64,000 bases of DNA, from NCBI RefSeq assembly GCF_000337135.1, contig NZ_AOIN01000008.1:223989-287988 (forward strand). The letters run 5' to 3'. Each line of letters opens with the position of its first letter. Position 1 is the stretch's first letter. Below, one piece after another: positions 50,994 to 54,635 of the stretch. The notes beneath the pieces were generated by a model that was given only the letters and a program-made list of their open reading frames with translations, made no database searches and was not told the DNA's origin. This DNA comes from Natrialba chahannaoensis JCM 10990 (GTDB taxonomy: Archaea; Halobacteriota; Halobacteria; Halobacteriales; Natrialbaceae). The position numbers and the translations under genes are program-made.

Positions 50994-52667
50994 TTACATC
51001 ATGCCGCCCATGCCGCCACCCATACCGCCCATGCCGCCCATGCCACCGCCGCCTGGTGGCATGTCCTCGCCGTCGTCATCGTCGGCAACCGCGAGGTCGC
51101 CGGCCGCGATGACGTCGTCGATGCGAAGCAGCATGACTGCGGCTTCGGTTGCGGACTCGATCGCCTGCGTCTTTACGCGCAGTGGCTCATAGACGCCTTC
51201 CTCGGCCATATCGATCGTGTCGCCGGTGAACGCGTCGAGACCTGCGGCCTCGTTGCCACCGTCGTGGTCGGCGCGAAGCTCGACGAGGGAGTCGATGGGG
51301 TCGAGACCCGCGTTCTCTGCCAGCGTGCGCGGGATGACCTCAAGTGCGTCCGCGAAGGCTTCGACAGCGAGCTGCTCACGGCCGCCGACGGAGTCGGCGT
51401 AGTCACGCAGTGCGAGCGAGAGCTCGACTTCCGGTGCGCCGCCGCCGGCGAGCACCTTGCCGTCCTGGAGCGTCGTCCGAACGACGCCAAGGGAGTCCTC
51501 GATTGCGCGGTCGACTTCGTCGATGACGTGCTCGGTGCCACCGCGGAGGATCATCGTGACGGCCTTCGCGTCGTCGACGTCCTCGACGAAGATGCGCTGG
51601 TCGCCTGCGATGTCCTTCTGGGCAACGCTGCCGGCGAAGCCGAGGTCGTCCTCGCTGAGGTCCTCGACCGAGGAGACCGGCGTTGCGCCAGTTGCGCGGG
51701 CCAGCTGGGACTGGTCGCTGGACTTGACGCGGCGGACGGCGATGATGCCTTCCTGGGCGAGGTAGTGCTGGGCCATGTCGTCGATGCCGCCGTCGACGAA
51801 GACAACGTCGGCACCGGCGTCGGCGACCTGCTCGGCCATCTCCTTGAGCTGCTGTTCTTCCTGTTCGAGGAACTGCTCGAGCTGGTCCGGGTCGGTAACG
51901 TTGACCTCAGCGTCGATCTCGGTCTCCTTGATCTCGAGGTCGCCGTCGACGATCGCGACAGAGGCATCCTCGGCGAAGTACGGCATGTTGTCCGAGACGC
52001 GCTCCTTGTCGACGATAACGCCCTCGACGAGTTCGGAGTTCTCGATCGAACCGCCGACGACCTTCTCGACCTTGATGTTGTCCGTGTCGATGGTGTCCTC
52101 GTCAGCGACGGCCTGAACGGCGTCGACGACGAGACCCGACAGGAGATCTCGAGCGCTCTCTGCGCCCTTGCCAGTCATCGCGGTGGCGGCGATCTGGTGG
52201 AGGATTTCGTCGTCGTCCTCGTCGACCTCGATCGCGATCTCTTCGAGTGCGCTCGTGGCTTCCTCGGCAGCCTGGCGGTATCCCTGTGCGAGCGTGGTTG
52301 CGTGGATGTCCTGCTCGAGGAGATCCTCTGCCTGACTGAGGAGTTCACCGGAGACGACGACGGCGCTCGTGGTGCCGTCGCCGACCTCGTCCTCCTGGGT
52401 CTCGGCGACTTCGACGATCATGTCGGCCGCCGGGTGGTCGATCTCCATCTCCGAGAGGAGTGTGACGCCGTCGTTCGTGACGATGACGTTGCCCGAGGAG
52501 TCGACGAGCATCTTGTCCATCCCCTTCGGGCCAAGGGTCGTCCGAACGGACTCGGCGACTGCCTTACCGGCCTGTACGTTCATCGACTGCGCGTCTTTCC
52601 CAGAGGTTCGCTGGCTGTCCTCCGAGAGAACGATGAGGGGCTGGTTGCCCATCTGCTGTTGAGCCAT
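50994..52667 (-). CDS. thsA: Thermosome (group II chaperonin) subunit
   Basis: A 557-residue group II chaperonin subunit that folds proteins in an ATP-driven two-ring complex. Motifs are [15 protein letters not shown] near the N-terminus, [15 protein letters not shown] (phosphate-binding P-loop) and [15 protein letters not shown] in the apical region, with the Gly/Met tail [17 protein letters not shown]. The ATG at 52667 is preceded two codons upstream by an in-frame GTG. A TATA box lies about 30 bases upstream. Haloarchaea carry two or three such genes, so the exact paralogue number is uncertain. Confidence 0.95.
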
Positions 52668-52693
52668 AGTCACCTGAAGGATTGATTGCTATT

Positions 52694-52702
52694 CTATATA
52701 AG
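52694..52702 (-). promoter_or_regulatory. Thermosome TATA box
   Basis: On the minus strand CTTATATAG lies about 30 bases upstream of the ATG at 52667, the spacing expected for a leaderless archaeal transcript. Confidence 0.6.
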
Positions 52703-52777
52703 TGTTTTGATATAGTTCAGTATTAGTCCGGCAAAACGGCAACAGCAACCCCCTCTACTAAGTTATTCGCAACCTTT

Positions 52778-52953
52778 TATACTACGATAGCTCTTCCGTA
52801 GGAGATTGTTGATCCAGCCTTTCGTTGCGGACCGCATTCAGTAACTGGCCGTCAGAACTGCTGAGTCATGCGTTCTCGATCCGCTTGACTCACTACGGAA
52901 TCGCAAGACGGCTCTCCATCAACAATGTGCTACACAAGAACGTATACTACGAT
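52778..52953. mobile_element. MITE-like element with inverted repeats and target-site-like duplication
   Basis: An 11-base direct repeat (TATACTACGAT at 52778-52788 and 52943-52953) flanks 154 bases. The terminal 25 bases on each side (52789-52813 and 52918-52942) are imperfect inverse copies (19 of 25 identical), including the perfect 9-base core ATTGTTGAT / ATCAACAAT. There is no transposase gene inside. The 11-base duplication is in the size range known for IS4-type elements, so it may be a non-autonomous relative. A matching full-length element would be needed to name it. Confidence 0.7.
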
Positions 52954-53007
52954 TGGAGAGGAAGTAGTGATCAGAGATATCACTCATATACAGGCTAGAG
53001 ATTTGCT

Positions 53008-53403
53008 TCACTCCTCATATCGCATCCCATCCCTAGTCGTGTAGGATATCGTGATCTTTGTCAGCCCGGGGTTCTGTGTTTCTTGTAATTTTTTAGAAAT
53101 ATCAATACTGCCTGAATCCTCGTCGTTGACTACGTATTCTACTGTTTTTGCCTCAGCCGGAAAGGACTCGGTACGGAATCCCTTTCCAGGCTTGATCCGT
53201 GGGTGGCCCTTATACAGGATACAGTCTTTAGCCCCTCGAACGATAAGTTCAATCGACACCGGTTCTCGAGTGAGATTATTAACGATCAGGACTTCCTCAT
53301 CCTCATGATCGGTATTAATTACCCATTCTGAGCAACCCGGTAGCAAGACACCAATCCCGACGAACACGAGTTGAAGAATCTGTCTCCGTCTATGATAGGA
53401 CAT
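53008..53403 (-). CDS. AT-rich island lipoprotein, unknown function
   Basis: A 131-residue lipoprotein starting MSYHRRRQILQLVFVGIGVLLPGCSEW, with a basic N-terminus, hydrophobic core and lipobox LPGC. The mature part is beta-rich (EEVLIVNNLTREPVSIELIVRGAKDC) and carries conserved-looking KGFRTESFPAEAKTVEYVV. Codon usage and base composition are distinctly more AT-rich than the neighbours, suggesting foreign origin. The gene starts 34 bases downstream of the next gene's stop, so the two may be one operon. No family is recognised. Confidence 0.7.
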   Translation of the reverse strand: MSYHRRRQILQLVFVGIGVLLPGCSEWVINTDHEDEEVLIVNNLTREPVSIELIVRGAKDCILYKGHPRIKPGKGFRTESFPAEAKTVEYVVNDEDSGSIDISKKLQETQNPGLTKITISYTTRDGMRYEE

Positions 53404-53436
53404 ATATCATTAACCCTATATAATAAGGCTAAAAGA

Positions 53437-54333
53437 TTACATTACTTCTTTGGCTTTAATATGAAAGGTTTTACCCTCCGGAGTATGTTGTAGTGTTTCG
53501 GACTCCTCGTACTCATTCTGCTTAAATGTGATTGATGCTGGATATGACACTGCCACGTCCGGTTCTGTCCCTTTCCACGCATATTCGTATATTCCACGAA
53601 CGGATGTCTCAGGTCTGAAATCAACGTCCTTCTCAAGAAAAACTCCAGCGACGACCATCTGACTCCAGTCCGTTTCATCGTTTCCAGTCTTCCCGGAATC
53701 GATCGATGCCTGATATCCATCAACGAGAATACCGAGTCCCGATCCGGTCCAGCTTCCTTCGTCAAACTCGGTGTAGTCATCAGTCACAACGGATCTATGA
53801 ACCTCTCGATGGTCTCGTATCTCTAATCTCTTGGCTGCGGAACTGTTTTCCCACGTGAGACCGAGTGTGTCTACCGGATCTTCCGGTCCTGCATAGATAT
53901 CCCGTGGAGGGTACGATGGATCGTCTGCATACCCGTATCTAAACCGAATGTAATACGAATAATGGAATTCTTCTCCTCGTGGATTATAGGTCAGAGAAAA
54001 CTGGACGTTAATATCAGCATCACAGTCAAGTGGATCGACACAAATCGGTGGTTCGTGCGCTGGTTGTGCCCGGTCTTCTTCCGAGGCGTTTTTTTGGACT
54101 GCAAACTGATGGTCCTTTTCTATGTGATTGATGCCAACTCTGTCTAGATACTTCTGACGCTCCTCCAGCCCTTCTTGTTTTGCGATCTGTTGGGCCTGAA
54201 TCATCTGCTTCGTAAACTTCTCACTGGGATCGTCACGTTCACGAGCAACAACTGTTCCTGCAGCACCGAATCCGGCTGTTATTGCCCCGGCTGTCGCCAG
54301 CACTTTTCGTCGGGAGAGATCGTTTTTCTCCAT
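53437..54333 (-). CDS. Tat-exported protein, unknown function
   Basis: A 298-residue protein with a twin-arginine signal (LSRRKVLATAGAITAGFGAAGTVVAR), so it is exported folded. A helical segment follows (FTKQMIQAQQIAKQEGLEERQKYLDRVGINHIEKDH, residues about 40-75). The rest is beta-rich and acidic, with YNPRGEEFHYSYYIRFRYGYADDP and CVDPLDCDAD, suggesting a disulphide. It is unusually low in GC compared with the rest of the window. It lies upstream of the small lipoprotein and both likely share a promoter. No family is recognised. Confidence 0.72.
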   Translation of the reverse strand: MEKNDLSRRKVLATAGAITAGFGAAGTVVARERDDPSEKFTKQMIQAQQIAKQEGLEERQKYLDRVGINHIEKDHQFAVQKNASEEDRAQPAHEPPICVDPLDCDADINVQFSLTYNPRGEEFHYSYYIRFRYGYADDPSYPPRDIYAGPEDPVDTLGLTWENSSAAKRLEIRDHREVHRSVVTDDYTEFDEGSWTGSGLGILVDGYQASIDSGKTGNDETDWSQMVVAGVFLEKDVDFRPETSVRGIYEYAWKGTEPDVAVSYPASITFKQNEYEESETLQHTPEGKTFHIKAKEVM

Positions 54334-54635
54334 TACGATTTACTATTGCCTGCAATTAATATTGAATGGATGTTAACGTTATCTGCTTCGTTCAATAGGC
54401 ATAATATATATATATATATATATATATGGTTTAGAATAAGACGGTCCATATTTAGTTATAGCGACCAGTATATGTAGATAGACCATGAATGGGCTCACAG
54501 TTACCAATACATCACCGGTTTGAAAACCGACCCTAGTGAATCAAATCCCTCTATAAGACCGTACTACAGGACTGGATGGAGGAGAACAATTCCCTTTACT
54601 GAACACACGTAGTTCTGCAAGAATATAAGCGGCGG
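54334..54635. other. 302-base AT-rich intergenic region
   Basis: Contains a dinucleotide run (AT)12 at 54404-54427 and a perfect hairpin CGGTTT-GA-AAACCG at 54516-54529. No coding frame, tRNA or recognisable terminal repeat is visible. The sequence is among the lowest GC in the window and holds the promoter of the exported-protein gene. Confidence 0.6.

What the first reader, a model, noticed from the sequence alone, without database searches (positions are those of the whole stretch)
52778..52953. Non-autonomous MITE-like element next to the thermosome gene
Direct reading shows an 11-base direct repeat, TATACTACGAT, flanking 154 bases whose two 25-base ends are imperfect inverse copies (19 of 25 identical). 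The repeats, terminal inversion and lack of any gene inside are the marks of a miniature inverted-repeat transposable element. The direct-repeat length is in the range of IS4-type target duplications. I do not know a named element with these ends. It lies at the boundary of the AT-rich island.
Basis: partly seen in the sequence, partly recalled or inferred. Interest (0 to 1): 0.7.

Follow-up and report, generated by a model that had tools for sequence, protein, structure and literature searches.

The report
ISH4-type MITE upstream of thermosome gene
This is a short, gene-less jumping-DNA element of a kind already known in salt-loving archaea; a full-size transposon in the same genome carries matching ends and probably supplies the enzyme, and a related genome shows the unoccupied site, so it is real but ordinary.

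Summary
"MITE" is right; "IS4-type" is wrong. The same genome holds many copies of a 1000/1001-bp insertion sequence whose ends match the element at 23/25 on each side and whose 294-aa protein is an IS1595-family transposase. Full-length 150-155 bp relatives occur in many haloarchaeal genera at different places; where a target duplication survives it is 7-9 bp, as in the IS. A Natrinema-group genome has the orthologous site empty, with one copy of the 11-mer (10/11 identical). The nearest relative is a Natrinema thermotolerans copy (147/154 identical). A named relative exists: the 154-bp element of Halobacterium pNRC100, split by ISH8B in pHS1, fits published MITEHsal1 (PMC10264941). The 11-bp duplication is 2-3 bp longer than is usual in relatives and stays unexplained. 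The element lies about 120 bp upstream of the thermosome start codon, outside the likely core promoter. A new member of a known kind; low interest.

The parts
52778..52788 (.). left copy of the 11-bp target-site duplication TATACTACGAT
   Evidence: single copy (TATAGTACGAT) at the orthologous empty site
52789..52942 (+). 154-bp MITE; ends and family of IS1595/ISH4-type elements; no known protein or RNA inside
52789..52813 (+). left terminal inverted repeat AGCTCTTCCGTAGGAGATTGTTGAT (family consensus begins with C, here A)
52918..52942 (+). right terminal inverted repeat ATCAACAATGTGCTACACAAGAACG (family consensus ends AAGAGCG)
52943..52953 (.). right copy of the 11-bp target-site duplication
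50994..52673 (-). thermosome (Cpn60/TCP-1) gene downstream of the insertion; start codon probably at 52667, about 120 bp from the element
   Evidence: ORF; PF00118

Best explanation
The 154 bp are a miniature inverted-repeat transposable element. It has no transposase; the IS1595-family (ISH4-group) transposase encoded by full-length insertion sequences in the same or a former host genome recognises the shared ends and moves the element to a new target, duplicating the target bases. This copy inserted between the thermosome gene and a neighbouring AT-rich island, most simply after the lineage split from its Natrinema-group relative. Shown: anatomy, matching IS, family copies at other sites, empty site. 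Inferred: that this transposase does the moving in trans, and that this copy is now probably inert (one change at each end; only full copy in the genome).
For: Own genome: about 14 left and 11 right IS ends match the element's ends at 92-96%. Complete IS copies at C8:327070-328069 (1000 bp, reading frame disrupted) and C8:136663-137663 (1001 bp, intact 294-aa ORF), each flanked by an 8-bp duplication and matching the element at 23/25 on each end. The protein hits NF033547 IS1595 transposase (3e-40, above cutoff) and PF12762/PF12760. Family: 95 of 292 class genomes match (this includes IS ends); full-length 150-155 bp copies in many genera, most with CGCTCTT...AAGAGCG ends. In the tallied set 17 of 48 MITE copies have a 7-9 bp duplication and 14 of 33 IS copies likewise. 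Empty site in G196 with one TATAGTACGAT between flanks about 88-90% identical. The Natrinema thermotolerans copy is 147/154 identical, at another locus with its own 9-bp duplication.
Against: The 11-bp duplication is longer than in every relative measured with exact ends (7-9 bp). The first base is A where nearly all relatives have C. Only one full copy exists in this draft genome. The interior shares no significant sequence with the IS (best nhmmer E = 0.28), so it is not a simple internal deletion of the present IS.
Confidence: 0.95

Rival explanations
1. The element is moved by an IS4-type (ISH8-like) transposase, as ISH2 is in Halobacterium, which would explain the long 11-bp duplication.
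For: ISH2 is described as a MITE mobilised in trans by ISH8, with 10-bp duplications (PMC10264941); 11 bp is nearer to that than to 8-9.
Against: The ends match the IS1595/ISH4 elements of the same genome at 23/25 on each side, and relatives with the same ends show 7-9 bp duplications.
Confidence: 0.02
2. The conserved element has been kept for a host function, for example as a regulatory or RNA element upstream of the thermosome gene.
For: It sits about 120 bp upstream of the thermosome start codon; besides the ends, an inner box AATCGCAAGA is conserved across the family.
Against: Family copies lie at unrelated loci; the orthologous relative lacks it; no Rfam match; it lies about 87 bp beyond the likely TATA box.
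Confidence: 0.03
3. Same element and mechanism, but the true duplication is 8-9 bp and the extra 2-3 repeated bases are chance or carried-over bases at one end (a sub-hypothesis about the duplication, not a rival to the MITE reading).
For: Relatives have 7-9 bp; two extra matching bases would occur by chance about 1 time in 16, and the terminal base here is unusual.
Against: With an 11-bp duplication the element has exactly the consensus length of 154 bp and no extra bases.
Confidence: 0.3

Closest known systems
MITEHsal1 (Halobacterium salinarum, PMC10264941)
   Same: The 154-bp element at pNRC100 122425-122578 has the same length and ends; in pHS1 it is split by ISH8B next to an ISH4, as described for MITEHsal1.
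   Different: The interior has diverged; the MITEHsal1 reference sequence itself was not available, so the identity is inferred from position and description.
ISH4 (IS1595 family, ISH4 group)
   Same: Terminal repeats; 8-9 bp target duplications (PMC10264941 lists 8 and 9 for ISH4).
   Different: About 1000 bp with a transposase gene; the interior is unrelated to the MITE.
ISH2 / ISH8 (IS4-type MITE system of Halobacterium)
   Same: A transposase-less element depending on a full IS; 10-bp duplications.
   Different: About 530 bp and tied to another transposase family; its ends were not aligned to this element here.

Membership tests
MITE of IS1595 family, ISH4 group | short, no transposase gene, terminal inverted repeats | tested here: met
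MITE of IS1595 family, ISH4 group | ends match an autonomous IS with an IS1595 transposase | tested here: met
   23/25 at each end
MITE of IS1595 family, ISH4 group | target duplication of 8-9 bp | tested here: inconclusive
   family copies 7-9 bp; this copy 11 bp, or 8-9 plus chance bases
MITE of IS1595 family, ISH4 group | insertion polymorphism / empty site | tested here: met
   G196 orthologous site empty with one repeat
MITE of IS1595 family, ISH4 group | mobilised in trans by the IS transposase | not testable with these tools
   needs a transposition assay
MITEHsal1 | sequence match to the ISfinder reference | not testable with these tools
   the reference was not held; the pNRC100/pHS1 location and the ISH8B interruption fit the published description
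IS4-type MITE (ISH2/ISH8) | ends matching an IS4-family element | not tested
   ISH8/ISH2 ends were not aligned directly; the IS found with matching ends is IS1595-family, which makes this reading unlikely

The most novel reading that the evidence does not exclude
An old, class-wide MITE lineage (about 154 bp, conserved ends plus an inner AATCGCAAGA box not shared with the IS) travels between haloarchaeal genera, can duplicate targets of variable length up to 11 bp, and may carry host genes as MITE-bounded composite transposons.
Probability: 0.2. Interest if true: 0.4.

Novelty: new member of a known kind. Interest (0 to 1): 0.22.

Why it matters
It adds a documented insertion with an empty site to a haloarchaeal MITE family and ties the family to its likely transposase. 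The 147/154 match between two genera points to recent horizontal movement. The effect on the thermosome gene is untested and not expected to be large.

Tried and rejected
IS4 assignment: rejected on the end matches to an IS1595-family IS. Derivation from the present IS by internal deletion: no significant interior similarity. Structured RNA: no Rfam match. Empty site within the genus: not available, because the six congeners show no match to the island beyond the thermosome start region and those read directly have only a short gap there; found in a related genus instead. Phage records: only one chance-level hit. Literature on ISH4-type MITEs: only MITEHsal1/2 found by name. Bacterial promoter scan: one hit, at the level of shuffles and not apt for archaea. 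A pattern test with an 8-bp repeat abutting 15/25 ends gave nine chance-like hits in the window and not this element, whose repeat is 11 bp.

Full report
Observation. TATACTACGAT lies at 52778-52788 and 52943-52953 and nowhere else in the window; the 154 bp between have 25-bp ends that are inverted copies at 19 of 25, the best of 63,846 equal placements in the window. Nothing inside matches an RNA family and the only listed ORF across it is a 57-aa frame.

What it is. A search of the window's own genome with the 154 bp gave one full copy plus about 25 hits to the two ends only, many of them at contig ends, as expected where a multicopy IS breaks an assembly. Two of these pairs are complete insertion sequences on the same contig, 1000 and 1001 bp, each flanked by an 8-bp duplication (TCGCACGA; TTGTTCTT) and matching the element at 23/25 on each end. 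One has an intact 294-aa frame that is an IS1595-family transposase with zinc-ribbon and ISXO2-like DDE domains; the plasmid annotation calls the Halobacterium relative an IS1595-like ISH4 family transposase. That the window's IS is ISH4 group rests on this family match, its size and its 8-bp duplication. The partner is therefore ISH4-type, not IS4-type.

The family. Of 292 genomes of the class, 95 had a match (this includes IS ends); full-length copies of 150-155 bp occur in many genera. Their alignment shows conserved ends of about 30 and 22 bp, an inner AATCGCAAGA box, and a variable middle. The interior shows no significant similarity to the IS. In an exact-pattern scan of one genome per species, all 14 hits were Halobacteria. 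The closest copy (147/154) is in Natrinema thermotolerans with its own 9-bp duplication. Duplications, where present, are 7-9 bp both for MITE copies (17 of 48) and IS copies (14 of 33); a few loci in these sets are repeats or ambiguous. The rest have none, which may reflect recombination or adjacent deletions; this was not resolved.

Empty site. The six congeners have no match to the island that follows the thermosome gene; in those read directly the thermosome and KH-domain genes are separated by only a short gap. There the orthologous sequence reads CTTTTATAGTACGATTG, one 11-mer (10/11) with no element, between flanks about 88-90% identical.

Mechanism. The best account is mobilisation in trans by an IS1595/ISH4 transposase. 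Shown: shared ends, resident IS with an intact frame, copies at many sites, duplication, empty site. Inferred: the transposase acting on this element, and the present copy being inert, since it has A for C at its first base and A for G near its right end and is the only full copy. The 11-bp repeat is the one odd feature: either a longer stagger, which fits the exact 154-bp length, or an 8-9 bp duplication plus chance bases.

Known or new. In Halobacterium pNRC100 a 154-bp copy lies at 122425-122578; in pHS1 it is split by ISH8B beside an ISH4. The description of MITEHsal1 in PMC10264941 (targeted in pHS1, ISH4 nearby) fits this element, so the family very probably has a name already. The finding is a new member of a known kind.

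Setting. The element is about 120 bp upstream of the likely thermosome start codon (52667) and about 87 bp beyond the TATA-like box at 52694-52702 (sequence; placement is my reading). No effect on expression can be claimed.

Noticed in passing
L189 (Natribaculum breve plasmid CP095391.1) 545-697 and 5985-6137: Two identical 153-bp MITE copies in the same orientation bracket a 1583-aa subtilase/PKD-domain ORF; the outer flanks TATCCAGTA and TATTCAGTA match at 8 of 9, as in a MITE-bounded composite transposon.
   Followed up: partly
window about 52710-54620: AT-rich (45% GC) island between thermosome and KH-domain genes, with two ORFs without family matches, not found in six congeners but about 88-90% identical in one genome of another genus.
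   Followed up: partly
L173 reverse complement about 2500-2590: Near the orthologous site G196 has an extra stretch of about 80 bp with inverted ends AGCAACTGAACG / CGTTTCAGTTGCT, possibly another small mobile repeat.
   Followed up: no
loci L083-L164: About 60% of MITE and IS copies show no target duplication at all, while the rest have 7-9 bp.
   Followed up: no
L034 / G000:C34:16792-16825: Partial match (88%) to the right part of the MITE near a degraded ISH4-type copy at C34:15858-16576.
   Followed up: no
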